Positions 1 through 36,395 of a DNA stretch of 64,000 nt are shown piece after piece (within the stretch, counting starts at the first letter, position 1; each line of letters opens with the position of its first letter). A program made the translations under genes and the position numbers. The notes below the pieces were generated by a model that did not search any database, was not told the origin of the DNA, and was given only the letters and a program-made list of their open reading frames with translations. The stretch is taken from assembly GCA_032433765.1 (NCBI GenBank), contig JAVIAB010000041.1:73244232-73308231 (forward strand). The letters run 5' to 3'. The DNA comes from Megaustenia siamemsis (Eukaryota; Mollusca; Gastropoda; Stylommatophora; Ariophantidae).

Positions 1-22
1 TATTCTATAATGTCATCATCAG

Positions 23-196
23 GTCCCAGCAAAGACTCTCCCAGAATACGATTACTGTGTGACAGCATTGATTATGGAAACTTCAACAGCACAAACTCTG
101 ACCTCACTATTTTCTTTCATTCTGTCGGGCTAAGAAATGCTAGCACTGGCTTTATATTCTCATTTCAGGCTAAAATGAAGTCAAACAAACCTATTG
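23..196 (+). CDS. Exon A of CUB-domain membrane protein gene: C-terminal half of a CUB domain
   Basis: The exon begins after an AG at 21-22 and ends at a strong donor (g|GTAAGT at 197). Both boundaries are phase 1. It encodes about 58 residues starting at the Gly of a CUB 'YDG' motif, followed by PSKDSPRIRLLCD, which holds the fourth conserved CUB cysteine, and then an aromatic-rich strand, IFFHSVGL...GFIFSFQAK. Two N-glycosylation sequons are visible (NST, NAST). It is a clear paralogue of exon D: same start phase, same LLCD block, same ending. CUB domains are extracellular beta-sandwich modules for protein binding, usually in secreted or membrane proteins. Upstream exons, including the start and signal peptide, are outside the window. 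The acceptor tract is only weakly pyrimidine-rich, so the start is inferred mainly from phase. Confidence 0.8.
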
Positions 197-317
197 GTAA
201 GTAAACAATATAAATTAATGCTCACATGCGAGTGATCAGTTTAAGGACTGACTTGTCATATTTAAGAAAATTTGTTATTAAGAAATCATTCAGAAAATTC
301 ATTTAAAAAAAGAAAGA

Positions 318-705
318 AATTCACTGGATGCTGCAGAAATGTGGTTTTACAGAAGAATGTTGAAAATACCATTGACAGTTAAGAAGAGTGACGAAAATTT
401 TCTGAAAGAGGCCAAAGCAAAAAAGACATCTAATATTCAATATAATAGGAAGAAACAATCATCGTTCTTCGGCCATGTAATGAGATGGGAACAGCTGGAA
501 TATATTGTAATAACTCGGAACGTTGAGGGACGAAGAGATAGACTAGAGGGAAGCAAAGAGAAAAGATACCAGACAGCTTTAGAGAATGGCTTGGCAGAAG
601 GTCAACAACAGAAATGATAAATAACTGTCGAAATCGAAAGTTTTGGAGAGACACGATCACCTACACCAGCAAGCATGGTACTTGATGATGATGATATAAT
701 ATTTT
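318..705 (+). pseudogene. LINE reverse-transcriptase C-terminal fragment (family A)
   Basis: Reads WFYRRMLKIP, then SFFGHVMRWEQLEYI and a basic GRRDR stretch, a C-terminal tail typical of RTE-like non-LTR retrotransposons. Only the last ~100 residues and a very short 3' region ending in a GATGAT run (from about 684) remain. Related pieces occur at 13495-14690, 14866-14950, 18895-19700, 29150-29636 and 31683-31905. Clade placement is inference. Nothing suggests function. Confidence 0.75.
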
Positions 706-884
706 AAATTGGTTCTCTTAATGCAGGTTCCGGAAGTAAAAGAAATGCAAGCGTTCTTGTGTTATTTCGAACGTATTTATTTGTGATGTATTCTTACAGT
801 TTGTTTTAATTACCATCCATTGTGCTATTACGAGCACGAACGAAAATGCAAAATGAAAGCGGGAAAACTACAACACAAAAAAAA

Positions 885-1110
885 AAAACAAGCAGAGTGT
901 TTAATAGGCACTTGGAACATCTGCGGTTTAGGTGATAAAAGCACAGAAATAGTTGAATTTATGAAGACAAGGAATATAAAAATCTTATGATTAGCGGACA
1001 CAACCAGCTTTCACCATTGCTAAGACATCGAAACATTTCTATGCCAGCTAAACAACAAATGATAAATAGCATTTTCATACCAACTTTGTGCTATGAAAGT
1101 CAAACATGAA
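885..1110 (+). pseudogene. LINE family C, left part, split by the giant palindromic element
   Basis: About 893-1007 reads as the start of an apurinic-endonuclease domain (LIGTWNICGLGDKS, then FMKTRNIKIL with a stop after it). It jumps near 1015 to a reverse-transcriptase C-terminal segment (ISMPAKQQMINSIFIPTLCY), so the copy has lost its interior. The frame runs into CATGAA at 1105-1110, where the giant element begins, and resumes at 11923. The two flanks were one LINE copy before that insertion. Confidence 0.7.
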
Positions 1111-1170
1111 AGTAGTATAGCAGGGTCCATTTGACCCGTATTTGGACCGTAAATTAACAAAGATATATAG

Positions 1171-1190
1171 TGTGGTGCGCAGCGCACCAC
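1171..1190. other. Perfect hairpin near the element terminus
   Basis: TGTGGTGCGC and GCGCACCACA face each other around a single A, a 10-bp GC-rich stem some 60 bp inside the end of the element. The same hairpin is mirrored near 11843-11863 in the right arm. It could be a transposase/integrase or replication recognition structure; that is inference. Confidence 0.7.
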
Positions 1191-1898
1191 ATGTACATGA
1201 GAGACAGGGGGAGTTAACCGTGACATTTCGTGTCGAGGTATTGACCTCTAGTCCAGGTGACCCGGAAGTGACGTGTTTATGTCTGGTGTGTCCTGGCTTT
1301 GGAGTTCTTTATGTACTTGATCGTTAGTGATAGGTTAGTAGATTATACAACAGCATTGAAAAACAATCAATATAAAACAAAAGACAAAAGATATATTTTA
1401 TTCTTTTATTATCTCAATAGGTGTATAACATACAGTGGATATTATATAATATTACAAACATATTCAGTACATTGAGTAAATATATAGTACAAGGATAACA
1501 ATTATTTATAGCTATGTAGTTGGGTGTCTGCTTAGCTCTATGTCATAAATGAATCATAAGGGGTGAAACTATTAGAGATTGCTGGGTAGTCTAAGCTGGT
1601 AGTGTAAAGAGTTAAATATCTAGAGGAGTTGTCGAGACGTTATCATCAGCTACCTTTCTTTTTATATAGAAATAGGAAAGAGCATTTCTTGTTTGACTGT
1701 AGGAAAATATGGAATTATTTAAGACTTTGAAACCTACATTTTTCCCACCCTTAGCCATTTGCGTAGCGAGAACCTCTAAAAACATATCTTTATCTAATTT
1801 GTTGTGTTGCTTGCTTAGCCCTTTACAACTGATTTTATCGTAATCCCCACTACAATGGTACGTCTTACTACATAAGCTAACAAGAGCTGTCCCTTCGT

Positions 1899-2596
1899 CT
1901 TCTACCTTTTAGCTCCCAGTGGAGCATAGGTCTTCAACAAACACTTTCCAAGTCGTTCTGTTTTTTGCAATTCTTTTAAGATCATTCCATGTCTTCCCCA
2001 TCATCTTCATCTCTGCTTCAATCTGTCTTCTCCAAGAATTCCTTGGTCTTCCTCTTTGTCTTTTCCCCTGGGGATTCCAAAAAAGGGCCTGTTGTGTAAT
2101 ACTCTCAGTTGGTTTCCGTAGTGTGTGTCCTATCCATCGCCATCGTCTTCGCTGTATTTCTTTATCCACTGGTATTTGACCGGTACATTTCCATAATTCC
2201 ACGTTTGTGACTTTGTCCTGCCATTTCCATCCCTTTATTCTGCGCAAGCATCCATTAATGAAAGTCTGTACCTTCGTGATTGTCAATTTTGTTATTCTCC
2301 ATGTTTCACAGCCATATAATAGAACCGACTTAACATTGGAGTTGAAAATTTGTATTTTTGTATTTAGCCTAATTTCTTTGGATTTCCATATGTTTCCCAG
2401 TGCAATGAAAGCTCCTCTTGCTTTTGATATCCTTATTTTGGTATCGTTTTCTGTTCCTCCCTCTTTATCTATATTACTGCCCAGATATATATAAGATTGT
2501 ACGTCTAGTAGAGGTATTTCTCCTAGTTTTATTTGGTTATTGCCAACTGCATTAATTCTCATAATGTTGGTCTTATCTCTATTAATCTTTAGAACT
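1899..2596 (-). mobile_element. LINE family D 3' fragment inserted in the left arm only
   Basis: Flanked by an 11-bp target duplication TGTCCCTTCGT (1888-1898 and 2597-2607) that occurs once in the right arm. On the minus strand it encodes 217 residues of a reverse-transcriptase C-terminal region: YIYLGSNIDKEG, LLYGCETWR, RRRWRWIGHTLRK, GKRQRGRPR, and an end WKVFVEDLCSTGS. The 3' side is short and not polyadenylated, as in RTE-like elements. The uninterrupted right arm shows this is a younger, one-sided insertion. The 5' end is truncated before the reverse-transcriptase catalytic motifs. Confidence 0.9.
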
Positions 2597-2689
2597 TGTC
2601 CCTTCGTACTCTAGTTTAAAAAGCCCGGGCGTTCGTTTGGTGTACGCTTTAACACCCTTACAGTTTATACAGTCTGTTTTGCTAGTATG

Positions 2690-3370
2690 TTCATCGCAGC
2701 GATGGGTGTATGGAGGTCGCCTAGTGTGTAATAAGGGCTGTATAGGGGTCGTCTAGTGTGCCGTGATGGGTCAATGGAGGTCGGCTAGTATGTCGTGATG
2801 GGTGTACGGAGGTCGTCTAGTGTGTCATATTGGGTGTATAGAGGGCGTTTAGTGTGTCATGATGGTTGTATAGGGGTCGTCTAGTGTGTCATGATGGTTG
2901 TATAGGGGTCGTCTAGTGTGCCGTGATGGGTGTACGGAGGTCGTCTAGTGTGTCATATTGGGTGTATAGAGGGCGTTTAGTGTGTCATGATGGTTGTATA
3001 GGGGTCGTCTAGTGTGTCATGATGGTTGTATAGGGGTCGTCTAGTGTGCCGTGATGGGTCAATGGAGGTCGGCTAGTATGTCGTGATGGGTGTACGGAGG
3101 TCGTCTAGTGTGTCATATTGGGTGTATAGAGGGCGTCTAGTGTGTCATGATGGGTGTATAGCGGTCGTCTAGTGTGTCATATTGGGTGTATAGAGGGCGT
3201 CTAGTGTGTCATGATGGGTGTATGTAGGTCGTTTAGTGTGTCATATTGGATGTATAGAGGGCGTTTAGTGTGTCGTGAGGGGTGTATGGAGGTCGTCTAC
3301 TGTGTCGTGAGGGGTGTATGGAGGTCATCTAGTGTGGTATGTGTGGTGTATGGCGGTTGTCTGGTATATC
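2690..3370. repeat. 32-bp minisatellite in left arm
   Basis: About 20 units of GTCTAGTGTGTCATGATGGG-type sequence with variants (ATATTGGG, CCGTGATGGG). Some multi-unit blocks repeat as groups, for example 2780-2920 and 2930-3060. Confidence 0.9.
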
Positions 3371-3380
3371 ATACTTTAAT

Positions 3381-3789
3381 CAACCAATAAGAAAAATGAA
3401 GGAACATTACATTCAACATTACTTATCTTAACTACTTTACATCAATACAGTTGAATAACGTGTTATCGTTAAGTCTTACCATACTTTAAGAGAAAACATT
3501 CAAACTTACAGCGTAAAATATAGTCTCAATCATCTACACCGAATATAACCTGTTATCGATAAGCCTTAACATACGTTAAGAGAAAACAAGCCAACTTACT
3601 GTGCAAAAATCCGCTAGTGTGAACAGTAACTTTCCTTGAATCAACCAAACTTATAACGCCGTCTAGTTTAAATATAACCTGGTAAGAAATGAATAAATTA
3701 GCCAATCAGCGAGTGACTATGCCAACATCGCTTGATATCGGGATTAACCAATCAGAAAAGAGTATTAACATAGGAGGCGGGGCGAAGAA
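3381..3789 (+). promoter_or_regulatory. CCAAT/GC-box promoter-like region in left arm
   Basis: Three CCAATCAG-type boxes (near 3700, 3750 and 3810, the last within the following ORF) and a CCAATAAG at 3386, plus a GC box GGAGGCGGGGC at about 3774. This sits just upstream of an ORF ending at a splice donor. The spacing looks like a pol II proximal promoter without a TATA box. An identical copy is mirrored at 9953-10361. No transcript evidence is available. Confidence 0.4.
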
Positions 3790-4098
3790 ATGGCTGACAG
3801 GTGGATTAACCAATCAGAAAAGCGCGTTAGCCCAAGCGTAGGTAGTGGCTGTCGGGTCAGCAGTGGGGGAAAAATGCGGGGTGGTGGGTTACTTGAACTC
3901 GTTTTGACCCCTGAGGCAATTCCAGAAGAGTTCTATGACCTCATTTTGACCGCTGAAGGCTTTAATACCAAGGTTTCCCACTTCAACGAACGACATACAT
4001 CATTAAAGGTGATTACTTCAGCTCTTAGACTTTGGAGTTCCATATCTTTATCACTTCAACGAATGACAGACAACAGTAAAGATGATCATTTCAGGTAA
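3790..4098 (+). CDS. Hypothetical 102-aa ORF / candidate first exon in left arm
   Basis: Starts MADRWINQSEKRVSP right after a GC box and runs 102 codons. The end overlaps a good splice donor (TTTCAG|GTAAGA; GT at 4095), and the TAA stop lies inside that donor, so this is either a small ORF or a first exon read into a downstream exon. An exact copy lies at 9644-9952 on the minus strand. I do not recognise the protein: no transmembrane segment or known motif, and a Gly-rich stretch around residues 27-34. Perfect conservation between arms may reflect gene conversion or recency rather than selection. Confidence 0.35.
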   Translation: MADRWINQSEKRVSPSVGSGCRVSSGGKMRGGGLLELVLTPEAIPEEFYDLILTAEGFNTKVSHFNERHTSLKVITSALRLWSSISLSLQRMTDNSKDDHFR

Positions 4099-4109
4099 GA
4101 AAACTTAGT

Positions 4110-5410
4110 TCCAAACCTAAAATTTTGGTTCATACTCACAAAGTTGAACACAAACTCTACAAATTTAGGCCCAAAGTTGTAATTGTTAGACACGAAAGTC
4201 GTAAATGTTATATGCAAAGTCCAAAAGTTTGTCAAAAAGACAACCCAAACTCAAAATAGTTAGATGCAAAGCTCAAAAATGTATATGCAAAGTCCAAAAA
4301 GTTACTCCAAAAGACAACTAATATAACACTTAACCCCAAAATTTCGTCTCATAACCAAAAAGTTGAACTCAAAACCCTAAAAATTTAGTCCCAAAGTGAT
4401 ACTAGTTCGACACAAAAGTCGTAAATGTTATATACAAAGTCTAAAAGTTTGTCAAAAAGACAACCCAAACTCAGAATAGTTAGACACAAAACCCAACAAT
4501 TTATAGGCAAAGTCCAAAAAGTTACTCCAAAAGACAACTAATGTAACTCTTAATCCCAAAATTTCGGCTCATATGCACAAAGTTGAACACGAACTCTACA
4601 AATTTAGTCCCAAAGTCGTAATTGTTAGACACGAAAGTCGTAAATGTTATATTCAAATCCAAAAGTTTGTTAAAAAGACAACCCAAACTCAAAATAGTTA
4701 GACACAAAACTCAACAATTTATAGGTAAAGTCCAAAAAGTTACTCCAAAAGACAACTAATGTAACACTTAACCCCAAAATTTCGTCTCATAACCAAACAG
4801 TTGAACTCAAAACCCTAAAAATTTAGTCCCAAAGTGATACTAGTTCGACACAAAAGTCGTAAATATTATATACAAAGTCTAAAAGTTTGTCAAGAAGACA
4901 ACCCAAACTCAGAATAGTTAGACACAAAACCCAACAATTTATAGGCAAAGTCCAAAAAGTTACTCCAAAAGACAACTAATGTAACACTTAACCCCAAAAT
5001 TTCGTCTCATAACCAAACAGTTGAACTCAAAACCCTAAAAATTTAGTCCCAAAGTGATACTAGTTCGACACAAAAGTCGTAAATGTTATATACAAAGGCC
5101 AAAACTTTGTCAAAAAGACAACCCAAACTCAGAATAGTTAGACACGAAAGTCATAAATGTTATATGCAAAGTCCAAAATTTTGTCAAAAAGACAACCCAA
5201 ACTCAGAATATTTAGACACAAAAGACCAAATAGTTACATTCAAAGTCCAAAAGTTTGTCAAAAAGACAACCTTAACGCAAAATAGTTAGACACAAAACCC
5301 AACAATTTATATGCAAAGTCCAAAAAGTTACTCCAAAAGACAACTAATTTAACAACAAGCCCTAAAATTTCGTCTCATAACCAAAAAGTTGAACTCAAAA
5401 CCCTAAAAAG
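4110..5410. repeat. ~220-bp tandem array in left arm
   Basis: Five to six diverged units containing the phrases AAGTTTGTCAAAAAGACAAC and TAGTTAGACACAAAAC. Exact recurrence at 4761 and 4981 gives a 220-bp period. Mirrored at about 8335-9632. Reading frames across it are artefacts of the repeat. Confidence 0.85.
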
Positions 5411-5759
5411 TGTCCACTTATCAACCAAAGTCTTTAATACAGCTGAGAAAACCCTAATAAATAATTACAATTCACTAAAAATGTTGCACTTGATGATAGT
5501 TGCGACTGTGTCTAAATCATTATTGAAAATATTCATAGAACTCTAGTAAAAGCCAAACACACTAAAACACCACATTGAAAGAATGAACTTAAAGTTCACG
5601 CCCCTGTCACAACTCTGCTAAGAAAAGTACTGCAAAGCATGAAAGTTATGTCCCCTGCTATAACTCTACTAAACGAAAGTATTACCAAACACGTAGGTTA
5701 CACTCCTACCATAACCCACTAAGAAAAACAAGATTTTGCTTAAAATACCACATTTATGA

Positions 5760-6640
5760 TTGTTACGCCCCTTGACCCTTTATGAGGGGACGCCCATGAA
5801 ACTGTTAGAAATAGTAAATTTACACTCTAGGGTTACTCCAAACTTTATATTAAGCATCCCCATAGCAAAAATTTACTAAAAAACCACTTTTATGAGTGTT
5901 GCCCCCTTACCCATTTTTGGCGGTTACGCCCATGAAACTGTTAAAAATAGTAAATTTAACAGCTAGACATACCCCAAACTTTATAATAAACATCCCCGTA
6001 TCAAGAATTTACATAAAAACAACTTTTGAAATTACTACCCCTGTACCCATTTTTGGCGGTTACGCCCACGAAACTGTTAAAAATAGTCAATTTAACATCT
6101 AGACATACCCCAAACTTTATATTAAGCATCCCCGTATCAAGAAGTTACATAAAAACAACTTTTGAAATTACTACCCCTGTACCCATTTTTGGCGGTTACG
6201 CCCACGAAACTGTTAAAAAATAGTCAATTTAACATCCAGACATACCCCAAACTTTATATTAAGCATCCCCGTATCAAGAATTTACATAAAAACAACTTTT
6301 GAAATTACTACTCCGGTACCCATTTTTGATGGTTACGCCCATGAAACTGTTAAAAATAGTAAATTTACACTCTAGACATATCCCAAACTTCATTTTAGTC
6401 ATCCCCATATCAAGAATTTACATAAAAATCACTTTTGAAATTACTACCCCTGTACCCATTTTTGGCGGTTACGCCCATGAAACTGTTAAAAATAGTCAAT
6501 ATAACACCTAGACATATCCCAAACTTTATATTAAGCATCCCCGTATCAAGAAGTTACATAAAAACAACTTTTGAAATTACTACTTCTGTACCCATTTTTG
6601 GCGGTTACGCCCATGAAATCGATAAAAAAATTGAAGTTTA
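5760..6640. repeat. ~136-bp tandem array in left arm
   Basis: About six units with GGCGGTTACGCCCATGAAAC and ACCCATTTTTGG. Mirrored at 6964-7985, which has one extra unit. The ~65-aa frames in it repeat the same peptide and are not separate genes. Confidence 0.9.
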
Positions 6641-6744
6641 ACCTATTGGCATACATCAAACATAATATGTGACACGCCCATGTATCAAATTTGCCTAAAA
6701 AATCAACCAAAAATTAGTAGTATACAATGTCAATTAGGACGGAT

Positions 6745-6867
6745 AAAAGTGCCTTTGAAGGCACCTAAATCCTTATATAAATAGTCTACCCGTACATCGA
6801 GGCACATTTTTTGGTGCGGTTTTTCCTTATATGAGAGTCTACCGTTTTTCCTTATAGTCTATCCATC
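6745..6867. other. Central spacer of the palindrome
   Basis: The non-palindromic loop, starting where GACGGATAAAAG stops matching the other arm's GATGGATAGAC. It contains a small hairpin (GTGCCTTTGAAGGCAC near 6750), a TATATAAAT stretch and two copies of ACCGTTTTTCCTTATA-like sequence. No ORF of note. Confidence 0.7.
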
Positions 6868-6963
6868 CTAATTGACATTGTATACTACTAATTTTTGGTT
6901 GATTTTTTAGGCAAATTTGATACATGGGCGTGTCACATATTATGTTTGATGTATGCCAATAGG

Positions 6964-7985
6964 TTAAACTTCAATTTTTTTATCGATTTCATGGGCGTAA
7001 CCGCCAAAAATGGGTACAAGGGTAGTAATTTCAAAAGTTGTTTTTATGTAACTTCTTGATACGGGGATGCTTAATATAAAGTTTGGGATATGTCTAGGTG
7101 TTATATTGACTATTTTTAACAGTTTCATGGGCGTAACCGCCAAAAATGGGTACAGGGGTAGTAATTTCAAAAGTGATTTTTATGTAAATTCTTGATATGG
7201 GGATGACTAAAATGAAGTTTGGGATATGTCTAGAGTGTAAATTTACTATTTTTAACAGTTTCATGGGCGTAACCATCAAAAATGAGTACCGGAGTATTAA
7301 TTTCAAAAGTTGTTTTTATGTAAATTCTTGATACGGGGATGCTTAATATAAAGTTTGGGGTATGTCTGGATGTTAAATTGACTATTTTTTAACAGTTTCG
7401 TGGGCGTAACCGCCAAAAATGGGTACAGGGGTAGTAATTTCAAAAGTTGTTTTTATGTAACTTCTTGATACGGGGATGCTTAATATAAAGTTTGGGGTAT
7501 GTCTAGATGTTAAATTGACTATTTTTAACAGTTTCGTGGGCGTAACCGCCAAAAATGGGTACAGGGGTAGTAATTTCAAAAGTTGTTTTTATGTAAATTT
7601 TTGTAATGGGGATGCTTAATATAAAGTTTGGGTATGTCTAGATGTTAAATTGACTATTTTTAACAGTTTCGTGGGCGTAACCGCCAAAAATGGGTACAGG
7701 GGTAGTAATTTCAAAAGTTGTTTTTATGTAAATTCTTGATACGGGGATGTTTATTATAAAGTTTGGGGTATGTCTAGCTGTTAAATTTACTATTTTTAAC
7801 AGTTTCATGGGCGTAACCGCCAAAAATGGGTAAGGGGGCAACACTCATAAAAGTGGTTTTTTAGTAAATGTTTTGCTATGGGGATGCTTAATATAAAGTT
7901 TGGAGTAACCCTAGAGTGTAAATTTACTATTTCTAACAGTTTCATGGGCGTCCCCTCATAAAGGGTCAAGGGGCATAACAATCAT
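6964..7985. repeat. ~136-bp tandem array in right arm
   Basis: Inverted counterpart of 5760-6640 with one additional unit (about 7570-7700) that contains a small deletion (TTTTTGTAATGGGG). Confidence 0.9.
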
Positions 7986-8334
7986 AAATGTGGTATTTTA
8001 AGCAAAATCTTGTTTTTCTTAGTGGGTTATGGTAGGAGTGTAACCTACGTGTTTGGTAATACTTTCGTTTAGTAGAGTTATAGCAGGGGACATAACTTTC
8101 ATGCTTTGCAGTACTTTTCTTAGCAGAGTTGTGACAGGGGCGTGAACTTTAAGTTCATTCTTTCAATGTGGTGTTTTAGTGTGTTTGGCTTTTACTAGAG
8201 TTCTATGAATATTTTCAATAATGATTTAGACACAGTCGCAACTATCATCAAGTGCAACATTTTTAGTGAATTGTAATTATTTATTAGGGTTTTCTCAGCT
8301 GTATTAAAGACTTTGGTTGATAAGTGGACACTTT

Positions 8335-9632
8335 TTAGGGTTTTGAGTTCAACTTTTTGGTTATGAGACGAAATTTTAGGGCTTGTTGTTAAATTAGTTG
8401 TCTTTTGGAGTAACTTTTTGGACTTTGCATATAAATTGTTGGGTTTTGTGTCTAACTATTTTGCGTTAAGGTTGTCTTTTTGACAAACTTTTGGACTTTG
8501 AATGTAACTATTTGGTCTTTTGTGTCTAAATATTCTGAGTTTGGGTTGTCTTTTTGACAAAATTTTGGACTTTGCATATAACATTTATGACTTTCGTGTC
8601 TAACTATTCTGAGTTTGGGTTGTCTTTTTGACAAAGTTTTGGCCTTTGTATATAACATTTACGACTTTTGTGTCGAACTAGTATCACTTTGGGACTAAAT
8701 TTTTAGGGTTTTGAGTTCAGCTGTTTGGTTATGAGACGAAATTTTGGGGTTAAGTGTTACATTAGTTGTCTTTTGGAGTAACTTTTTGGACTTTGCCTAT
8801 AAATTGTTGGGTTTTGTGTCTAACTATTCTGAGTTTGGGTTGTCTTCTTGACAAACTTTTAGACTTTGTATATAATATTTACGACTTTTGTGTCGAACTA
8901 GTATCACTTTGGGACTAAATTTTTAGGGTTTTGAGTTCAACTGTTTGGTTATGAGACGAAATTTTGGGGTTAAGTGTTACATTAGTTGTCTTTTGGAGTA
9001 ACTTTTTGGACTTTACCTATAAATTGTTGAGTTTTGTGTCTAACTATTTTGAGTTTGGGTTGTCTTTTTAACAAACTTTTGGATTTGAATATAACATTTA
9101 CGACTTTCGTGTCTAACAATTACGACTTTGGGACTAAATTTGTAGAGTTCGTGTTCAACTTTGTGCATATGAGCCGAAATTTTGGGATTAAGAGTTACAT
9201 TAGTTGTCTTTTGGAGTAACTTTTTGGACTTTGCCTATAAATTGTTGGGTTTTGTGTCTAACTATTCTGAGTTTGGGTTGTCTTTTTGACAAACTTTTAG
9301 ACTTTGTATATAACATTTACGACTTTTGTGTCGAACTAGTATCACTTTGGGACTAAATTTTTAGGGTTTTGAGTTCAACTTTTTGGTTATGAGACGAAAT
9401 TTTGGGGTTAAGTGTTATATTAGTTGTCTTTTGGAGTAACTTTTTGGACTTTGCATATACATTTTTGAGCTTTGCATCTAACTATTTTGAGTTTGGGTTG
9501 TCTTTTTGACAAACTTTTGGACTTTGCATATAACATTTACGACTTTCGTGTCTAACAATTACAACTTTGAGCCTAAATTTGTAGAGTTTGTGTTCAACTT
9601 TGTGAGTATGAACCAAAATTTTAGGGTTTGGA
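8335..9632. repeat. ~220-bp tandem array in right arm
   Basis: Inverted counterpart of 4110-5410, nearly identical. Confidence 0.85.
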
Positions 9633-9643
9633 ACTAAGTTTTC

Positions 9644-9952
9644 TTACCTGAAATGATCATCTTTACTGTTGTCTGTCATTCGTTGAAGTGATAAAGATAT
9701 GGAACTCCAAAGTCTAAGAGCTGAAGTAATCACCTTTAATGATGTATGTCGTTCGTTGAAGTGGGAAACCTTGGTATTAAAGCCTTCAGCGGTCAAAATG
9801 AGGTCATAGAACTCTTCTGGAATTGCCTCAGGGGTCAAAACGAGTTCAAGTAACCCACCACCCCGCATTTTTCCCCCACTGCTGACCCGACAGCCACTAC
9901 CTACGCTTGGGCTAACGCGCTTTTCTGATTGGTTAATCCACCTGTCAGCCAT
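9644..9952 (-). CDS. Hypothetical 102-aa ORF / candidate first exon in right arm
   Basis: Exact inverted copy of the ORF at 3790-4098, again ending inside a GTAAGA donor, with the same upstream CCAAT and GC boxes at 9953-10361. Both copies point toward the centre of the palindrome, so transcripts from the two arms would converge and be complementary to each other. Confidence 0.35.
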   Translation of the reverse strand: MADRWINQSEKRVSPSVGSGCRVSSGGKMRGGGLLELVLTPEAIPEEFYDLILTAEGFNTKVSHFNERHTSLKVITSALRLWSSISLSLQRMTDNSKDDHFR

Positions 9953-10369
9953 TTCTTCGCCCCGCCTCCTATGTTAATACTCTTTTCTGATTGGTTAATC
10001 CCGATATCAAGCGATGTTGGCATAGTCACTCGCTGATTGGCTAATTTATTCATTTCTTACCAGGTTATATTTAAACTAGACGGCGTTATAAGTTTGGTTG
10101 ATTCAAGGAAAGTTACTGTTCACACTAGCGGATTTTTGCACAGTAAGTTGGCTTGTTTTCTCTTAACGTATGTTAAGGCTTATCGATAACAGGTTATATT
10201 CGGTGTAGATGATTGAGACTATATTTTACGCTGTAAGTTTGAATGTTTTCTCTTAAAGTATGGTAAGACTTAACGATAACACGTTATTCAACTGTATTGA
10301 TGTAAAGTAGTTAAGATAAGTAATGTTGAATGTAATGTTCCTTCATTTTTCTTATTGGTTGATTAAAGT

Positions 10370-11045
10370 ATGATATACCAGACAACCGCCATACACCACA
10401 CATACCACACTAGATGACCTCCATACACCCCTCACGACACAGTAGACGACCTCCATACACCCCTCACGACACACTAAACGCCCTCTATACACCCAATATG
10501 ACACACTAAACGACCTACATACACCCATCATGACACACTAGACGCCCTCTATACACCCAATATGACACACTAGACGACCGCTATACACCCATCATGACAC
10601 ACTAGACGCCCTCTATACACCCAATATGACACACTAGACGACCTCCGTACACCCATCACGACATACTAGCCGACCTCCATTGACCCATCACGGCACACTA
10701 GACGACCCCTATACAACCATCATGACACACTAGACGACCCCTATACAACCATCATGACACACTAAACGCCCTCTATACACCCAATATGACACACTAGACG
10801 ACCTCCGTACACCCATCACGGCACACTAGACGACCCCTATACAACCATCATGACACACTAGACGACCCCTATACAACCATCATGACACACTAAACGCCCT
10901 CTATACACCCAATATGACACACTAGACGACCTCCGTACACCCATCACGACATACTAGCCGACCTCCATTGACCCATCACGGCACACTAGACGACCCCTAT
11001 ACAGCCCTTATTACACACTAGGCGACCTCCATACACCCATCGCTG
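10370..11045. repeat. 32-bp minisatellite in right arm
   Basis: Inverted counterpart of 2690-3370, same unit order. Confidence 0.9.
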
Positions 11046-11922
11046 CGATGAACATACTAGCAAAACAGACTGTATAAACTGTAAGGGTGTTAAAGCGTAC
11101 ACCAAACGAACGCCCGGGCTTTTTAAACTAGAGTACGAAGGGACAGCTCTTGTTAGCTTATGTAGTAAGACGTACCATTGTAGTGGGGATTACGATAAAA
11201 TCAGTTGTAAAGGGCTAAGCAAGCAACACAACAAATTAGATAAAGATATGTTTTTAGAGGTTCTCGCTACGCAAATGGCTAAGGGTGGGAAAAATGTAGG
11301 TTTCAAAGTCTTAAATAATTCCATATTTTCCTACAGTCAAACAAGAAATGCTCTTTCCTATTTCTATATAAAAAGAAAGGTAGCTGATGATAACGTCTCG
11401 ACAACTCCTCTATATATTTAACTCTTTACACTACCAGCTTAGACTACCCAGCAATCTCTAATAGTTTCACCCCTTATGATTCATTTATGACATAGAGCTA
11501 AGCAGACACCCAACTACATAGCTATAAATAATTGTTATCCTTGTACTATATATTTACTCAATGTACTGAATATGTTTGTAATATTATATAATATCCACTG
11601 TATGTTATACACCTATTGAGATAATAAAAGAATAAAATATATCTTTTGTCTTTTGTTTTATATTGATTGTTTTTCAATGCTGTTGTATAATCTACTAACC
11701 TATCACTAACGATCAAGTACATAAAGAACTCCAAAGCCAGGACACACCAGACATAAACACGTCACTTCCGGGTCACCTGGACTAGAGGTCAATACCTCGA
11801 CACGAAATGTCACGGTTAACTCCCCCTGTCTCTCATGTACATGTGGTGCGCTGCGCACCACACTATATATCTTTGTTAATTTACGGTCCAAATACGGGTC
11901 AAATGGACCCTGCTATACTACT

Positions 11923-12305
11923 CATGAACCCTTTCTAAATCACAATTAAGAAAGATCAATACACGTGAGATGCGATGCTTGAGAAAAGTAACAAACAACA
12001 CAAGAAGAGATAGAATACCAGATGAAACCATAAGAAAAATGGTTGGAACAAAACCCTGCAAGAATATATAGAACAACAACAACTTAAATGGTTTGATATG
12101 TCAAGGGCATTCTTCTCAAGAATACATGAAACAAGACCAAGAGGAAGATCCAGAAGAAGATGGATAGATGCAGTGACAGAGACATGTAACAACAAAGGAA
12201 AATCACTAACTCAGACAATTCGAGCAGCTCAAGAACGACAAATGATATAAACCACGACACCTTTTAGGTATCAGTAAGAGAGAGAAAAGAAGAAGAAGAA
12301 GAAAA
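11923..12305 (+). pseudogene. LINE family C, right part (RT C-terminus)
   Basis: Continues the frame broken at 1110: LSKSQLRKINTREMRCLRK, then after a frameshift near 12060 LKWFDMSRAFFSRIHETRP and GRSRRRWIDAVTE, ending at a stop near 12250. The 3' end is short and runs into a GAAGAA tail (about 12280-12305). Together with 885-1104 it forms one internally deleted LINE copy. Confidence 0.75.
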
Positions 12306-16632: not shown

Positions 16633-18756
16633 TATAGTTCGTTTCAAATCATGTGCCCAACTTCAAAACGCTATTACTCTCTAACCGTTTGTTAAAAACT
16701 TTTGAAATTTTCCAAATGTTATTACAATGCAAAAGACCCTTTAAATGTATATTTAACAAATATCTTGCAGCTGCAGTTTTCTTAAAGCGGCGAATTTCTT
16801 TAATGTTTGTCAAAATTGTAAATTGTGAAGCCCTAAAGAATATAAATTACCGTAGTTGCTGGTCTATGAATAATTTTCACTAGGTAAAGGCGTGGCCGTA
16901 ATGGGGAAATAACTGGATAAGACAAAACACCAGGAGAATTATTGTCTGCTCAGTTCGAGGACGGACGATAATATCAAGGTATACATGTATGTCCAATTTT
17001 CATAGTTGTGTGGTCCTGAAAAGGACCGTTTGTTGAAATAATTTAAGGTAATATAGGGGCCAACATTGTGGGGGCTATATACTTTCATTCTGAATCAGAC
17101 GAGTCTAAAAGATTAATAACTGTTTGGGGTTGAACATTCCACAAACCATCATTTTTCCAATATTCCTCTTCCTGTTTTAAGACGTGGTCTTCACATTTAG
17201 CCCAATAATCTTTGTCTATATTTAATAAAGCGAGATTAGCAAGAGTCTTTACATCGCATATTTTGAATGTTGCATTTTCATCTGCCACTTGTCCTTTTAA
17301 TTTTGCCAAGATTAGTTCTATTGGATTTAAATGAGCATGGTAAGGTGGCATCCTCAAACTTATATGACCGTGCTCTTGGATAATCTTTTCTATTTGAAAA
17401 ATCTTTGTCCTCTGTTTTTGCTTTACTAGAGATAGTAATTCAGGTTTTAAGTACATGTTATTAAATTGTATGTGCTCCTTTGTGAGCCATATCTTAATAG
17501 CATCTTTTGTACTGGATGATGTCGGGACTTTATCTTCAAGTGCAACAATGTTGTGGTACGCTGCATTGTCCATTATTAGGCAAGATGGTCGGTCTAGTGA
17601 TGGGAGAACATAATTTTCAATCCAATGTCTAAATATGTGACCATTCATCTCAGAGTGATAATCCCGATTGTCTATGGATTTTTAAAGAAAAATGAGCTCT
17701 GCATTCTGTATTAGTCCATGTTGTCGACTACCTGCATGAGCAATTATCAAGCGCTGTCCTTTGCTGCTAGGTATTAATCTCTTAATCTTTCCATCTGATG
17801 ACTGCCATTCCCTTTGGTTAGTGTGGTGAGCATTGATCCATGTTTCATCCAAGTACACAATATCATAACCTTGCTTGCGCACCTCTTTTACTTCACGTAA
17901 GTACTTGCTTCTCATGACTACTATATGTGGCTTCTCACAGATGATGTTTCGTCCATTGGAATACTTTCTTAATGTAAAGCCTGCAGCTCTCACATTCCTC
18001 CATAATGTAGACTTTGATATTTCAATACTGTTGTTCTTTTTCAGCGATACTTTTAATTTTCTTATTGTAACAGTTTCATTCATACCCAACATTTTGCGAA
18101 TTTCACTTCTAATAAGTTCACTGTCGAAATTATCCAACATTTTTGCTCTTCCTTGTGATTTTGTATATTTTGAACATTGACGGTCACGTGCTTGAATCCA
18201 GCGATTAAATGACCGTTTAGATAAATCCAAAATGTGTCTTGTCCTATTCTCATGGTTTTCTAAAGAATGAAATAATCTTCCTCGTTTAGCCTCTTTGCAA
18301 AAATAGCCATACATTTTTATTGCGATGTTTTGTAAACTGCAGAATTTCATTTTAAGACTCATGATAAATGTTATCGTTCCACGTCTCTGCCGCTGAATGA
18401 ACGGAAATGGAACACACAATGTCTCGTGTTTTTTAGAAGTGTCTAATTGTATCAGAAAACCCACGTTGAAAGCGTGCAAACACGTCAATTTGACAGTGTA
18501 TGGCCGTGTATTTTACTCGCTATTTTTAGCTTAAAATACTGTAAACATTAAGTTTTGTCTACACCAATGGGTCGTTATAAATTTATATAAATCAAATAAG
18601 CAACAATAATAACCAAATGTTTTTTTTTAATGAAATTAATTCCCTGTTGGGTTCTAATCATTATAACTTTACATGCAAATATTGAAGAACTTACAAAAAG
18701 CGGTTAAAACGATATCGATTTTAAAAGTTGGGCACGAGTTATGAAACGGACTATAA
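16633..18756 (-). mobile_element. Tc1/mariner-like DNA transposon with terminal inverted repeats
   Basis: The left end TATAGTTCGTTTCAAATC and the reverse complement of the right end TATAGTCCGTTTCATAAC pair up. Similarity continues inward (GTGCCCAACTT, then AACCG and TTTTTG stretches) for about 60-70 bp. A TA at each edge fits the TA target preference of the IS630-Tc1-mariner superfamily. The element is about 2.1 kb and contains one transposase reading frame on the minus strand with a single stop. Exact TIR limits are approximate. Confidence 0.75.
17085..18488 (-). pseudogene. IS630-Tc1-mariner DDE transposase, one in-frame stop, DD83E spacing
   Basis: One continuous frame except for a single TAA at 17679-17681. 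The likely start is the Met at 18362 (MSLKMKFCSLQ), with an upstream in-frame Met at 18488. The N-terminal part holds helix-turn-helix-like DNA-binding sequence (RKLKVSLKKN...STLWRNVRAAGF). The catalytic core shows VYLDETWIN (first Asp), LIMDNAAYHN (second Asp) and HLNPIELILAKLK (Glu). I count 83 residues between the second Asp and the Glu, against 34-41 in classical Tc1/mariner. From memory, a long-spacing animal group called Sailor (DD82E) exists; this could belong there, unverified. Few lesions suggest fairly recent inactivation. Confidence 0.85.
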
Positions 18757-19700: not shown

Positions 19701-19854
19701 CATAATTATTTGGGTTGATGAGAACACTTCTCATCAACAGCCTAATTCTCTATCAAATGAAGCAGCATCTCTATAGGGCAACATTCACAAAATAGGCATA
19801 ATATTTCTTCACACTTGAATCAATTCCTGGAGTTTCAGGCTTAATAAATATTTT

Positions 19855-20520
19855 TAATTTTACTTGTGTTTCAGCACCTTGTAACAATATCAATTTTACT
19901 TGTGTTTCAGCACCTTGTAACAATAACAAGTTTACTTGTGTTTCAACACCTTGTAATAATATCAATTTTACTTGTGTTTCAGCACCTTGTAACAATATCA
20001 ATTTTACTTGTGTTTCAGCACTTTGTAACAATATCAATTTTACTTGTGTTTCAGCACCTTGTAACAATATCAATTGTACTTGTGTTTCAGCACCTTGTAA
20101 CAATATCAATTTTACTTGTGTTTCAGCACCTTGTAACAATATAATTTTACTTGTGTTTCAGCACCTTGTAACAATATCAATTTTACTTGTGTTTCAGCAC
20201 TTTGTAACAATATCAATTTTACTTGTGTTTCAGCACCTTGTAACAATATAAATTTTACTTGTGTTTCAGCACCTTGTAACAATATCAATTTTACTTGTGT
20301 TTCAGCACCCTGTAACAATATCAATGTTACTTGTGTTTCAGCACCTTGTAACAATATCAATTTTACTTGTGTTTCAGCACCTTGTAACAATATCAATTTT
20401 ACTTGTGTTTCAGCACCTTGTAACAATATCAATTTTACTTGTGTTTCAGCACCTTGTAACAATATCAATTTTACTTGTGTTTCAGCACCTTGTAACAATA
20501 TCAATTTAACGGCAACAGAA
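19855..20520 (+). repeat. 36-bp minisatellite made of the exon B 3' splice junction
   Basis: Eighteen tandem copies of TTTTACTTGTGTTTCAG plus CACCTTGTAACAATATCAA. The last copy is the functional acceptor and first ~18 bases of exon B; the preceding 17 are duplicates spanning intron end and exon start. Decoy acceptors lie every 36 bp. One unit near 20135-20153 is 35 bp. The nine decoys downstream of it (acceptor positions 20162 to 20450) stay in frame with exon B with no stop, each adding 12 residues (APCNNINFTCVS or variants). Confidence 0.9.
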
Positions 20521-20567
20521 GCTCCTCAATACCTCCTTTCACCTAATTATCCAGACTGGTATCCAAG
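20486..20567 (+). CDS. Exon B of CUB gene: first strands of the second CUB domain
   Basis: Acceptor TGTGTTTCAG ends at 20485 and donor AAG|GTAAGAG starts at 20568. With one base from exon A it reads APCNNINLTATEAP, then QYLLSPNYPDWYP, the classic CUB opening: first conserved Cys, then SPNYP..YP. It ends in phase 2, matching exon C. The 5' edge is one of eighteen near-identical acceptors in the 36-bp array; this copy is chosen because it is nearest the conserved sequence and adds no repeat peptide. Upstream acceptors would lengthen the protein in 12-residue steps. Confidence 0.85.
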
Positions 20568-20635
20568 GTAAGAGCAACACACAATCACCAATACTGCATT
20601 AATACAAGGACAGAACATAACCACTGATCATTTTA

Positions 20636-21030
20636 AATGGCCTCCACATTGTCAAAAAATGGCCTCCGCATTGTCAAAAAATGGCCTTCGCATTGTCAAA
20701 AAATGGCCTCCGCATTGTCAAAAAATGGCCTCCGCATTGTCAAAAAAATGGCCTTCGCATTGTCAAAAAATGGCCTCCGCATTGTCAAAAAATGGCCTCC
20801 ACTTTGTCAAAAAATGGTCTCCACATTGTCAAAAAATGGCCTCCAATTTGTCAAAAAATGGCCTCCACTTTGTCAAAAAATGGCCTCCGCATTGTCAAAA
20901 AATGGCCTTCGCATTGTCAAAAAATGGCCTCCACTTTGTCAAAAAATGGTCTCCACATTGTCAAAAAATGGCCTCCACTTTGTCAAAAAATGGCCTCCAC
21001 TTTGTCAAAAAATGACCTCCGCATTGTCCA
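20636..21030. repeat. 22-bp minisatellite
   Basis: About 18 units of AAAATGGCCTCCGCATTGTC with CTTCGC, CCACAT and CCACTT variants and one 23-bp unit. It starts ~70 bp after exon B. Overlapping open frames are repeat artefacts. Confidence 0.9.
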
Positions 21031-21088
21031 AATGAGGAACATTTTCCTCCAGTACACCAGGGATATTATGTTACACTTTAGACAATTT

Positions 21089-33159: not shown

Positions 33160-33343
33160 TGTTATTTGTCTCAATGTTAGTATATTTTTCATGGCATTAA
33201 AATTACTTTTTGCCATTCATATTCTTTTGTTTGTTTCAGTTTTACATTTTCCATCACTAGTTATATATAGTATGTCTAATGTCATTGTAGCTCTGAACTG
33301 TCTCCGGGTCTATTCCTTCAACTTTGATATCCACTTGTAGGTT

Positions 33344-35287
33344 TTGATGGAAAAACGAGCTTGGATCTCAGACACCACATGGAAATACATCAAAGAAAGA
33401 AGAGAAGCGAAGAGAGCCATGACTAATGTAAAGACAGATCTTGGAAAGGTTCTGGCAAAAGCAACATACAAAGAATTAGACAACAAAGTGAAAAGTTCGG
33501 CAAGAAGAGATACAAGAGCTTATATAGACAACTTGGCAGAGAAAGCAGAGACAGCTGCAATTACAGGAGACAGCAGAACTCTTTATACTGTACAAAAGAT
33601 GCTGACAAACACCTATACATCCAGTGGAACACCAATTCTAGACAAATCTGGATTAATGCTAACAACAAGCGCAGACATAAAAGCCCGTTGGGCGGAACAC
33701 TTCAAAGAAATTCTTAACCGTCCACTACCTCACAGTTTAATAGATTTTGAAGCTGAAACACCAGCAGCAGAATTAGATGTAAATTTAGATGACTTCACCT
33801 TGAGTGAAATAGAAACCACCTTAAAGCTAATGACCAATAACAAGGCTGCTGGAGAGGATAAGTTAACAGCTGAGATCCTCAAGGCAATTGATAGCCATAA
33901 TTTAATACATCTCCAAAAAATGTTCAACATCATTTGGAAAACAGAGAAGACGCCTCATAAATGGAAAATAGGAATCATTGTTAAGATCCCAAAAAAGGGC
34001 AATCTTAGAGATTGTAACAATTGGAGAGGCGTGACACTTTTGTCAGTTGCCTCAAAATTATTCTGTAAAATCATCCTAAATAGAATAAAGGATTCAATAG
34101 ATACAGTAATGCGTGAAGAACAGGCTGGGTTTAGAAAAGGGAGAAGCTGTCTTGACCACATTTTCACTCTACGACTTATATTGGAGGAACACATTGAAAA
34201 GCAAAAACCTTTTGTACTTAACTTCATCGACTTCAAAAAAGCATTTGATAGTATTCATAGAGATTCTTTGTGGAAAATTCTGAAGCAATATGGCTTACCA
34301 TCAAAAATCATAAATATTATCAAAGACATGTATGATGGTTACACATGTGCAGTTCGAACAGAGGAAGGACTGAGCGAATGTTTCCCAATAGAAACTGGGG
34401 TTAAACAAGGATGTATTTTATCGCCCTTGTTATTTGGAATTGTTATGGACTTCATAATGAAGAAATGCTGCACTGGTAATAAAGGCATCGAATGGATACA
34501 AGGAGACCATTTGGAGGACCTGGACTTTGCTGATGACATAGTTCTCATCAGCAATCAGATAAAAACGATGCAGGAAAACACAAATGAACTATCATCAATA
34601 GCCAGCAAAATTGGGCTTGAGGTCAATCATGAAAAGACTAAAGTCATGAAAAGTTTAATTCCAACAAGTGACAAAATATACATGGAAAACAAACCAGTAG
34701 AAGAGATCGATCACTTCATCTATCTTGGAAGTCACATTGATCGAGAAGGGGATACGAGCAAAGAAATTAGAATCAGACTGGCTAAAGCAGCAATGTCTTT
34801 CAGAAGCCTTGAAAAGTTGTGGAAATCAAAACTCATTAGCACAAACACAAAACTTAGGCTATTCAAATCAAATGTACTATCAACCCTTACGTATGCGTGT
34901 GAAAGCTGGAAAACAACAAGAGATATAGAAACAAAGTTGAACGCATTCGAAAATAAATGTCTAAGGAAAATACTTGATATAGCATGGAACGAATTCAAAA
35001 CAAACGAGGAAATTAGAGAAATCGCCAAACAACCTCTTATATCTTCAGTAATAAAGAAAAGACGATGGTCATACGTTGGACATGTGATGAGAAGAGATAA
35101 TAATCGAATAGCAAAGCAAGCCCTCATATGGGAAACAACAGGTAAAAGAAAAAGAGGAAGACCCAGGGAGACACTGAGAAGAACATTGATGAGAGAGGCA
35201 AGAGCAGCAGGAATCGGCTCCCTCAATGAGATAGAACTGCTTGCACAGAATAGAGACAGATGGCGAGATTTGATAAAATATCTTTAA
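33344..35287 (+). CDS. Intact LINE family B reverse transcriptase ORF (5'-truncated element)
   Basis: 647 uninterrupted codons. Reverse transcriptase motifs are all present: NWRGVTLLSVASKLFCKI (about residue 226), EEQAGFRKGRSCLDHIF (about 257), motif A FIDFKKAFDSIH (about 294), motif B GVKQGCILSPLLFG (about 351) and motif C LDFADDIVLIS (Asp pair near 396), then the thumb and the C-terminal RRWSYVGHVMRRDNN and GKRKRGRPRETLRR. The AP endonuclease that normally precedes RT is missing: the first codons (MMEKRAWISD) correspond to the linker, so the element is 5'-truncated and the ATG is probably not a native start. An RNA-copying activity is plausible for the domain family; autonomous mobility is not. 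Confidence 0.85.
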   Translation: MMEKRAWISDTTWKYIKERREAKRAMTNVKTDLGKVLAKATYKELDNKVKSSARRDTRAYIDNLAEKAETAAITGDSRTLYTVQKMLTNTYTSSGTPILDKSGLMLTTSADIKARWAEHFKEILNRPLPHSLIDFEAETPAAELDVNLDDFTLSEIETTLKLMTNNKAAGEDKLTAEILKAIDSHNLIHLQKMFNIIWKTEKTPHKWKIGIIVKIPKKGNLRDCNNWRGVTLLSVASKLFCKIILNRIKDSIDTVMREEQAGFRKGRSCLDHIFTLRLILEEHIEKQKPFVLNFIDFKKAFDSIHRDSLWKILKQYGLPSKIINIIKDMYDGYTCAVRTEEGLSECFPIETGVKQGCILSPLLFGIVMDFIMKKCCTGNKGIEWIQGDHLEDLDFADDIVLISNQIKTMQENTNELSSIASKIGLEVNHEKTKVMKSLIPTSDKIYMENKPVEEIDHFIYLGSHIDREGDTSKEIRIRLAKAAMSFRSLEKLWKSKLISTNTKLRLFKSNVLSTLTYACESWKTTRDIETKLNAFENKCLRKILDIAWNEFKTNEEIREIAKQPLISSVIKKRRWSYVGHVMRRDNNRIAKQALIWETTGKRKRGRPRETLRRTLMREARAAGIGSLNEIELLAQNRDRWRDLIKYL

Positions 35288-35386: not shown

Positions 35387-36395
35387 TGAACAAGCTTGGT
35401 GATAGAATGCAGCTCTGTAGTAGTATAGGATAACAGTGTGATACAAGGACATGTAGAGATTACTTCAAAGATTTGCTCAGTGTATAGATTGAACAAGCTT
35501 GGTGATAGGTTGCAGCTCTGTAGTAGTATAGGATAACAGTGTGATACAAGGACATGTAGAGATTACTTCAAAGATTTGCTCAGTGTATAGATTGAACAAG
35601 CTTGGTGATAGAATGCAGCTCTGTAGTAGTATAGGATAACAGTGTGATACAAGGACATGTAGAGATTACTTCAAAGATTTGCTCAGTGTATAGATTGAAC
35701 AAGCTTGGTGATAGAATGCAGCTCTGTAGTAGTATAGGATAACAGTGTGATACAAGGACATGTAGAGATTACTTCAAAGATTTACTCAGTGTATAGATTG
35801 AACAAGCTTGGTGATAGGTTGCAGCTCTGTAGTAGTATAGGATAACAGTGTGATACAAGGACATGTAGAGATTACTTCAAAGATTTGCTCAGTGTATAGA
35901 TTGAACAAGCTTGGTGATAGAATGCAGCTCTGTAGTAGTATAGGATAACAGTGTGATACAAGGACATGTAGAGATTACTTCAAAGATTTGCTCAGTGTAT
36001 AGATTGAACAAGCTTGGTGATAGAATGCAGCTCTGTAGTAGTATAGGATAACAGTGTGATACAAGGACATGTAGAGATTACTTCAAAGATTTGCTCAGTG
36101 TATAGATTGAACAAGCTTGGTGATAGAATGCAGCTCTGTAGTAGTATAGGATAACAGTGTGATACAAGGACATGTAGAGATTACTTCAAAGATTTGCTCA
36201 GTGTATAGATTGAACAAGCTTGGTGATAGAATGCAGCTCTGTAGTAGTATAGGATAACAGTGTGATACAAGGACATGTAGAGATTACTTCAAAGATTTGC
36301 TCAGTGTATAGATTGAACAAGCTTGGTGATAGAATGCAGCTCTGTAGTAGTATAGGATAACAGTGTGATACAAGGACATGTAGAGATTACTTCAG
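35384..36395. repeat. 103-bp tandem array
   Basis: About ten highly uniform units beginning TAGATTGAACAAGCTTGGTG. Variation is limited to GATAGAATGC versus GATAGGTTGC and TTGCTC versus TTACTC. It starts exactly at the LINE tail. From 36396 to 36892 I see nothing recognisable. Confidence 0.9.

What the first reader, a model, noticed from the sequence alone, without database searches (positions are those of the whole stretch)
1105..11928. A 10-kb palindromic transposon with Polinton-type ends and 5-kb inverted repeats
Seen: arms near-identical over about 5 kb, ends AG...CT, perfect 6-bp direct repeat CATGAA at both edges. Known: Polinton/Maverick elements have 6-bp target duplications and AG...CT termini, usually with inverted repeats of hundreds of bases enclosing a set of viral-type genes. 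Here almost the whole element is inverted repeat and the centre is only ~120 bp. Inference: a non-autonomous derivative mobilised in trans by a Polinton integrase, perhaps formed when replication or repair copied one end across the element.
Basis: partly seen in the sequence, partly recalled or inferred. Interest (0 to 1): 0.9.

Follow-up and report, generated by a model that had tools for sequence, protein, structure and literature searches.

The report
Giant palindromic virus-like transposons
A 10.8-kb stretch that reads the same on both strands is one copy of a large family of mirror-image transposons, related to virus-like Polintons, whose fuller copies carry a DNA-polymerase gene in each half; it matters because such long near-perfect palindromes are normally unstable, yet here they have spread and stay nearly identical.

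Summary
In detail: window 1111-11922 is one palindrome (arms ~5.6 kb, core 174 bp) with (AGT)2...(ACT)2 ends and a perfect 6-bp duplication, CATGAA. It is not a one-off. The genome (2.59 Gb; closest named PolB relatives are gastropod) holds at least ~200 copies by the exact end. Of 26 copies examined, 22 show two inverted arms, and all 17 with both ends read have 6-bp duplications. Fuller copies carry in each arm an outward-reading gene for a zinc-finger PolB of Polinton/adintovirus type (1,477 aa and open in L036), under purifying selection. The window copy keeps only the PolB tail. No integrase or capsid gene was seen in the copies fetched. The two arms of one element differ by 0.23%, against 1.74% for shuffled pairs (13 elements), so arms are recopied from one another. 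L041 turns at a 5-bp micro-inverted repeat, L031 asymmetrically, as fold-back would give. The core is bounded by real transposon ends: the same sequence forms outer ends, with 6-bp duplications, of elements linked to a second PolB family that also looks palindromic. Best reading: Polinton-derived palindromic replicons copied by protein-primed synthesis with hairpin fold-back and integrated in trans; the integrase source is not shown.

The parts
1105..1110 (.). left 6-bp target duplication CATGAA
11923..11928 (.). right 6-bp target duplication CATGAA
1111..1119 (+). left terminal motif AGTAGTATA (A end, continues AGTAGTATAGCAGGGTCC)
11914..11922 (-). right terminal motif AGTAGTATA (A end)
1111..6745 (+). 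left arm of the palindrome (with a LINE fragment inside)
6860..11922 (-). right arm of the palindrome
6716..6889 (.). core: 174 bp bounded by inverted AGTAGTATA (B ends); nested mini-element or terminal hairpin
1612..1898 (-). PolB C-terminal tail, left copy, first part (interrupted by the LINE fragment; continues at 2608 to about 2698)
   Evidence: the end of the second part is inferred from the mirror position
11044..11421 (+). PolB C-terminal tail, right copy (from the residue matching 1353 of P0001; start inferred from the tail boundary)
1899..2596 (-). LINE fragment in the left arm only; duplicated target TGTCCCTTCGT at 1888-1898 and 2597-2607
2701..3362 (.). 32-bp tandem repeat, left arm (20.7 copies)
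10380..11041 (.). 32-bp tandem repeat, right arm (20.7 copies)
4119..5196 (.). 220-bp tandem repeat, left arm
8545..9628 (.). 220-bp tandem repeat, right arm
5790..6618 (.). 136-bp tandem repeat, left arm (6.1 copies); matched also in PolB-bearing relatives
6987..7951 (.). 136-bp tandem repeat, right arm (7.1 copies)

Best explanation
The element is a non-autonomous member of a family of palindromic, Polinton-derived transposons. Shown: every copy with both ends read has Polinton-type ends and 6-bp duplications; the family is palindromic; fuller copies encode an outward-reading PolB in both arms; the arms of one element are almost identical; the core is bounded by sequences that serve elsewhere as real termini. 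Inferred: (1) PolB copies the linear element by protein-primed synthesis from the AGTAGT ends. (2) A single strand folds back, either on inverted terminal motifs at the core (a terminal hairpin) or on a chance micro-inverted repeat, and primes itself, so that one arm is written from the other; this makes the palindrome and keeps its arms identical. (3) An rve-type (Polinton) integrase from elsewhere inserts the product with a 6-bp duplication. (4) The window copy lost the PolB body in both arms at the same point and is copied by PolB made by its relatives.
For: 6-bp duplication in 17 of 17 elements with both ends read: 14 unambiguous at the exact border, 2 (L009, L031) after one extra AGT, 1 (L046) in a TG microsatellite where it cannot be placed uniquely; 0 of 272 mismatched flank pairs agree at the border. 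End 18-mer 197 forward + 202 reverse in the genome, control 0/0. PolB: 1,477-aa open frame in L036 with C2H2 fingers and DANALY, KLLGNSAYG and DTDS motifs (motifs recalled as PolB-typical); PF03175 in 9 of 17 aligned proteins. dN/dS 0.19-0.33 in the 20 of 36 comparisons with dS of 0.05 or more. Arms: 0.23% apart within elements vs 1.74% permuted, 0 of 100000 permutations as low, 13 elements. L041: 4.1-kb palindrome, 99.4%, centre GAGTT-TTC-AACTC where other copies read GAGTTGAAAACTC, with its own 6-bp duplication. L031: arm 1-4620 joined to inverted arm 1768-1. In the five window-type copies with both tails listed, PolB starts at the same residue (1353 or 1355) in both arms. B ends with duplications ATCGAA and TACTTG. 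The extra AGT of L009 and L031 fits slippage at a protein-primed start (adenovirus analogy, recalled).
Against: No integrase, terminal protein or free linear DNA was shown. None of the 12 PF03175 matches in the genome lies at a family place (nearest 300 kb). The best PolB piece of L036 is under the Pfam cut-off (20.9 vs 25.8 bits) and the whole protein gives no PF03175 match at E 0.1, so the polymerase call rests on motifs and relatives. In 6 of 13 elements at least one arm is as close or closer to another element's arm. The remaining 16 of 36 dN/dS values run from 0.22 to 0.84 or are undefined. Only one symmetric fold-back junction was found; a stem of 5 with loop 3-10 occurs at 69 of 4900 arm positions. 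L031 shows no clear microhomology and, like L046, could be an internal deletion of a palindrome. L037, the single-arm copy, has no visible 6-bp duplication. The copies were picked as the best matches to the window's end, so young, similar ones are over-represented.
Confidence: 0.72

Rival explanations
1. The PolB-bearing palindrome is one segment of a segmented Polinton/adintovirus-like virus; integrase, ATPase and capsid genes sit on other segments with other ends.
For: The elements carry PolB but no other viral gene was seen in them. A separate A32-like ATPase frame (often 252 aa) occurs at more than 100 places (127 matches among 150 scored; family match of one copy). Bidnaviruses, which use a related PolB, can have up to twelve segments (PMC11071296, passage).
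Against: Of 127 ATPase matches one lies within 20 kb (17.9 kb) of the 190 family places compared, the rest more than 100 kb away or on contigs without one; the ends of the ATPase copies were not read; no capsid gene was sought by sequence.
Confidence: 0.12
2. The palindromes arise after insertion, by chromosomal inversion-duplication or gene conversion in the host genome.
For: Palindromes can form by fold-back repair in chromosomes (general knowledge).
Against: The 6-bp duplications flank the whole element in the 17 read at both ends, including the novel palindrome L041; the LINE fragment in the window's left arm has not been copied to the right arm.
Confidence: 0.06
3. A giant foldback-type DNA transposon moved by a non-Polinton transposase that also makes 6-bp duplications; the PolB tail is captured baggage.
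For: The window copy by itself has no recognisable transposition gene.
Against: PolB is long, outward-reading and conserved in many copies (30 of 86 scored have an open frame of 1460 aa or more without stop); the ends match the (AGT)2//(ACT)2 Maverick motif (PMC8097293, passage); among the frames scanned, the only other transposase is a Tc1-like one near the rearranged copy L038.
Confidence: 0.07
4. Assembly artefact (reads joined to their own reverse complement).
For: Such artefacts exist with amplified DNA (general knowledge).
Against: The arms differ by point changes, repeat number and a LINE fragment; many loci, each with its own target duplication; the core is unique and shared.
Confidence: 0.03

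Closest known systems
Polinton/Maverick transposons (vertebrate Mavericks of PMC8097293)
   Same: 6-bp duplications, (AGT)2...(ACT)2 ends, PolB; the paper reports end motif and duplications (passages).
   Different: The intact vertebrate Mavericks there have inverted repeats of 46-1,447 bp, 12.7-24.6 kb in all, and seven or eight conserved genes including integrase and capsid. Here the arms are about 5-6.5 kb where a core-bearing copy was read in full, almost the whole element, with PolB only or just its tail.
Adintoviruses (PolB with N-terminal OTU-like domain)
   Same: The PolB has an N-terminal region with zinc fingers and a D-x-x-C-type motif that I take, from recall, for OTU-like; the definition was read in section 16 of PMC11071296.
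   Different: No hexon or rve-chromodomain integrase was seen in the elements.
Adenovirus and yeast linear-plasmid palindromic defective genomes (symmetric recombinants, pGKL derivatives; recalled, not read)
   Same: Protein-primed linear DNA giving palindromic derivatives of one end.
   Different: Those are laboratory or episomal derivatives; here the palindrome is an integrated, amplified, inherited form.
Parvovirus rolling-hairpin replication; bidnaviruses
   Same: Self-priming from a terminal hairpin is the proposed way to the core-centred palindrome (parvovirus mechanism recalled); bidnaviruses use an adintovirus-class PolB (passage).
   Different: No parvovirus-type helicase or capsid gene was seen.
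Teratorn (piggyBac-herpesvirus element)
   Different: piggyBac transposase, 41-182 kb; unrelated machinery.

Membership tests
Polinton/Maverick | 6-bp target duplication | tested here: met
   17 of 17 elements with both ends read (two after one extra AGT, one in a microsatellite), control 0 of 272
Polinton/Maverick | AG...CT or (AGT)2//(ACT)2 ends | tested here: met
   all 17; motif as in PMC8097293 (passage)
Polinton/Maverick | protein-primed type PolB | tested here: met
   family level, by motifs and relatives. The window copy keeps only the C-terminal tail. Protein priming itself not testable here
Polinton/Maverick | rve-type integrase gene in the element | tested here: not met
   25 elements in 38 loci, several in part: non-PolB frames of 120 aa or more number 34; the 10 scanned are LINE-like, Tc1-like or unassigned. 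The window's frames: no integrase match in the 4 scanned
Polinton/Maverick | packaging ATPase, protease, capsid genes in the element | tested here: not met
   none among the frames scanned; none of 10 PF00770 and 1 of 127 PF04665 matches lies within 20 kb of 190 family places, that one 17.9 kb off; capsid not searched by sequence
Adintovirus | PolB with N-terminal OTU-like domain | tested here: inconclusive
Adintovirus | hexon and integrase with chromodomain | tested here: not met
   not among the frames scanned in the fetched copies; hexon not searched by its own profile
Foldback (long inverted-repeat) transposons | element made mostly of inverted repeats | tested here: met
   22 of 26 copies show two inverted arms; this is a form, not a lineage

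The most novel reading that the evidence does not exclude
A class of eukaryotic transposons that live as palindromic, capsid-less PolB replicons. Each is in effect one strand folded on itself: a terminal hairpin built from transposon ends self-primes the copying of the whole strand (a protein-primed rolling hairpin), so every round rewrites one arm from the other. At least two such lineages (A and B ends, PolB ~40% identical in the compared piece) share one genome, and the second supplies the hairpin at the centre of the first. They may be the replicase segment of a split Polinton whose integrase and capsid lie elsewhere.
Probability: 0.3. Interest if true: 0.92.

Novelty: new variant of a known kind. 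Interest (0 to 1): 0.8.

Why it matters
Long near-perfect palindromes are usually unstable in genomes (general knowledge), yet here at least 22 shown, and by end counts probably hundreds or more, persist with arms kept alike. If the mechanism holds, these are natural records of protein-primed replication and fold-back in a eukaryote: each insertion is a snapshot of a replication product, and the difference between its two arms dates it, as with LTRs. It would also show that a Polinton can be reduced to a polymerase and its ends and still amplify, and it makes testable how Polintons replicate (AGT-repeat start, hairpin intermediates).

Tried and rejected
Assembly artefact, post-insertion palindromy and non-Polinton foldback: see rivals. 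An inside-out version of the A family (B ends outside, A ends in the centre) was considered for the 11.9-kb element on C41 and rejected: after core-like sequence the DNA read there is not the A arm, and B ends go with another PolB. A link between the ATPase family and these elements was looked for by position and not found. rve (PF00665) in the genome gave 150 scored matches of 2391 candidates, which I take for retrotransposons mainly (open frames up to 1,725 aa); uninformative about a Polinton integrase. Viral-contig scans found no relative: the protein matched no pattern; the alignment matched three stretches, none confirmed. A solved-structure search with the alignment was swamped by zinc fingers in the 60 of 235 rows shown. 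Short contigs holding PolB relatives could be transcripts, so I drew nothing from them. Paper searches (open-licence PMC library, listings read) listed nothing on palindromic Polintons; that is the limit of any 'not in print' claim.
Full report
The observation. The window's element is a palindrome from 1111 to 11922, flanked by CATGAA. The left arm has taken up a 700-bp LINE fragment and the right arm one extra 136-bp repeat; otherwise the arms are 98-100% alike. Its ends read (AGT)2...(ACT)2, the motif reported with 6-bp duplications for vertebrate Mavericks (PMC8097293, passages).

A family, not a single case. The window lies in a 2.59-Gb genome. The outer 596 bp found 4550 first-look candidates, of which the best 40 were scored at 95-100% identity. 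The exact 18-letter end occurs 197 + 202 times, reversed control 0 + 0. Of the 100 places listed there, 33 pairs face each other 2.4-18.3 kb apart and 34 places stay unpaired. The PolB tail found 5812 candidates, of which 150 were scored; 56 facing pairs lie 6-15 kb apart, 36 with short frames on both sides (170 aa or less), 19 with longer frames on both, 1 mixed; 38 scored places stay unpaired. I examined 26 elements, the window included (38 loci L009-L046; several only in part). Of these, 22 show two inverted arms. The other four are L037 (single arm), L038 (rearranged), L043 (one arm, then a gap of N) and L046 (68-bp repeats only). L045 and L011/L012 belong to ends that share 14 bp of right flank (L005, L006) and are probably one insertion duplicated with the chromosome. 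All 17 elements with both ends read carry a 6-bp duplication; L009 and L031 have one extra AGT at the left end, and L046 lies in a TG microsatellite where its duplication cannot be placed uniquely.

What the elements encode. PolB-type copies have an outward-reading frame in each arm. L036 holds an open 1,477-aa frame on one side; the mirror frame, cut at 858 aa by the end of the locus, is also given as 1,477 aa in the genome search. It has C2H2 fingers, a conserved middle region and PolB-type motifs. PF03175 matches one piece at E 2e-4, under its cut-off; the whole protein gives no such match at E 0.1, but 9 of the 17 aligned proteins do, best E 1e-11. The best named relatives are from the gastropods Bradybaena, Pomacea, Littorina and Nucella, hence my inference about the host. 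[quoted passage not shown] I see a comparable motif but could not test the fold (model pLDDT 84; structure search off). In the 20 of 36 copy comparisons with dS of 0.05 or more, dN/dS is 0.19-0.33; in the 16 closer ones it runs from 0.22 to 0.84 or is undefined; the comparisons share copies and badly aligned blocks were left out. A 500-aa PolB piece gave 86 scored matches of 4744 candidates: 30 sit in frames of 1460 aa or more without stop, and among 19 facing pairs 4 have both arms that open. Window-type copies keep about the last 125 residues of PolB; in the five with both tails listed, the match starts at residue 1353 or 1355 alike in both arms. In the window the tail is followed by 32-bp, 220-bp and 136-bp repeats, and the other window-type copies match that interior. 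Ten of 34 other frames were scanned: reverse transcriptase, one Tc1-like transposase, unassigned; no integrase, no capsid-type match. They are therefore self-replicating at most, not complete Polintons.

Arms are recopied. Over the outer ~880 bp, the two arms of 13 elements differ by 0.23% on average; random pairing gives 1.74% and never below 0.63% in 100000 permutations. Four end rows were dropped from this test for incomplete matches. In 7 of the 13 elements each arm is the other's first-ranked nearest, ties included; in the other six at least one arm is as close or closer to another element. The difference stays low to ~3.4 kb from the ends in most elements; beyond, the large differences in some (L017, L021, L023, L025) lie where repeat arrays align badly. 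The LINE fragment in one arm of the window suggests that recopying does not happen after insertion, or has not yet.

How palindromes form. L041 is a 4.1-kb palindrome whose centre lies inside PolB, exactly at a micro-inverted repeat: other copies read GAGTTGAAAACTC, and L041 turns around at GAGTT-TTC-AACTC. It has normal ends and its own duplication CAGGTG, so the turn was made before insertion. Such stems (5 bp, loop 3-10) occur at 69 of 4900 positions of the arm, so chance placement is about 1.4% for this single case. L031 is arm 1-4620 joined to inverted arm 1768-1, as an asymmetric fold-back would give, though without clear microhomology. L013/L014 turn around at a 40-bp spacer in sequence from another PolB family. 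L046 keeps only 68-bp repeats.

The core. In 17 of 26 elements the centre holds a core of 172-359 bp (700 bp in L009/L010) bounded on both sides by inverted AGTAGTATA; two more show one border. Within the elements the 9-mer was otherwise seen only at the A ends, except in the rearranged L038. In the whole window it occurs 14 times, the other 10 in one 103-bp tandem repeat at 35.4-36.4 kb. The border AGTAGTATAGATTGGCACTTAGG occurs 86 times in the genome, 74 of them with the inner-arm prefix. Of the 12 without, I read five: L037, and two facing pairs 11.9 and 14.4 kb apart, which are outer ends of elements flanked by perfect duplications ATCGAA and TACTTG. So the core borders are genuine transposon ends (B ends). 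Just inside, the C41 element resembles the core for part of the stretch read and then differs. Among 42 B ends sampled, 15 pairs face each other 5.1-14.4 kb apart.

A second PolB family. The centre of L013/L014 carries a piece of a PolB ~40% identical to the first. It has 150 scored relatives of 3628 candidates in the genome, with frames up to 1,476 aa. Eight of the 150 lie within 12 kb of a sampled B end (2000 shifted controls: mean 0.06, maximum 2), all eight oriented as outward reading requires, though for some only one end was sampled; 10 of 11 neighbouring pairs face outward from a shared centre, one of these being L013/L014 itself. The B family thus has the look of the same palindromic build; its elements were not read whole.

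Mechanism. The simplest chain: PolB starts at AGTAGT ends; a displaced strand whose 3' end carries two inverted B ends some 160-210 nt apart folds into a hairpin and primes itself; the copy is a palindrome with the B pair as core; the product is inserted by an integrase in trans. L037 has the build of the unfolded form (core at one end, A end at the other) but lies in a minisatellite and shows no clear duplication. All steps after 'ends and PolB exist' are inferred. The integrase is the weakest link.

Membership and novelty. By ends, duplication size and polymerase it belongs with Polintons/Mavericks; by gene content it fails the full definition, so I file it as a Polinton-derived palindromic variant, not as a Polinton proper. 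Ten paper searches in an open-licence library (listed in Tried and rejected) listed no such element.

Noticed in passing
genome places; one copy read as L047: An A32-like (poxvirus-type packaging) ATPase frame, often 252 aa and mostly without stops, occurs at more than 100 places of this genome (127 matches), away from the PolB palindromes sampled; what element carries it is unknown.
   Followed up: partly
C137:9135591-9145465 of the genome (L048 in part): A PolB of another type (1,025-aa frame) with an A32-like ATPase match about 8 kb away: probably an ordinary Polinton, its ends not read.
   Followed up: partly
window 1899-2596 and L025 about 990-3196: The same kind of LINE sits at the same point of the left arm in the window and in L025, with different lengths; repeated insertion or descent was not decided.
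   Followed up: partly
L038:1-201: A rearranged copy in which a truncated core lies 25 bp from an A end that has lost its first bases.
   Followed up: no
window 35419-36354: Ten AGTAGTATA motifs at 103-bp spacing in a tandem repeat, apparently unrelated to the element.
   Followed up: no
window 17085-18512: Two adjoining frames that look like a broken Tc1/mariner-type transposase (by eye only).
   Followed up: no
window 19802-21035 and 42577-43104: Frames made of short peptide repeats over long minisatellites (by eye).
   Followed up: no
window 33341-35287: A 648-aa frame that looks like a LINE reverse transcriptase (by eye only).
   Followed up: no
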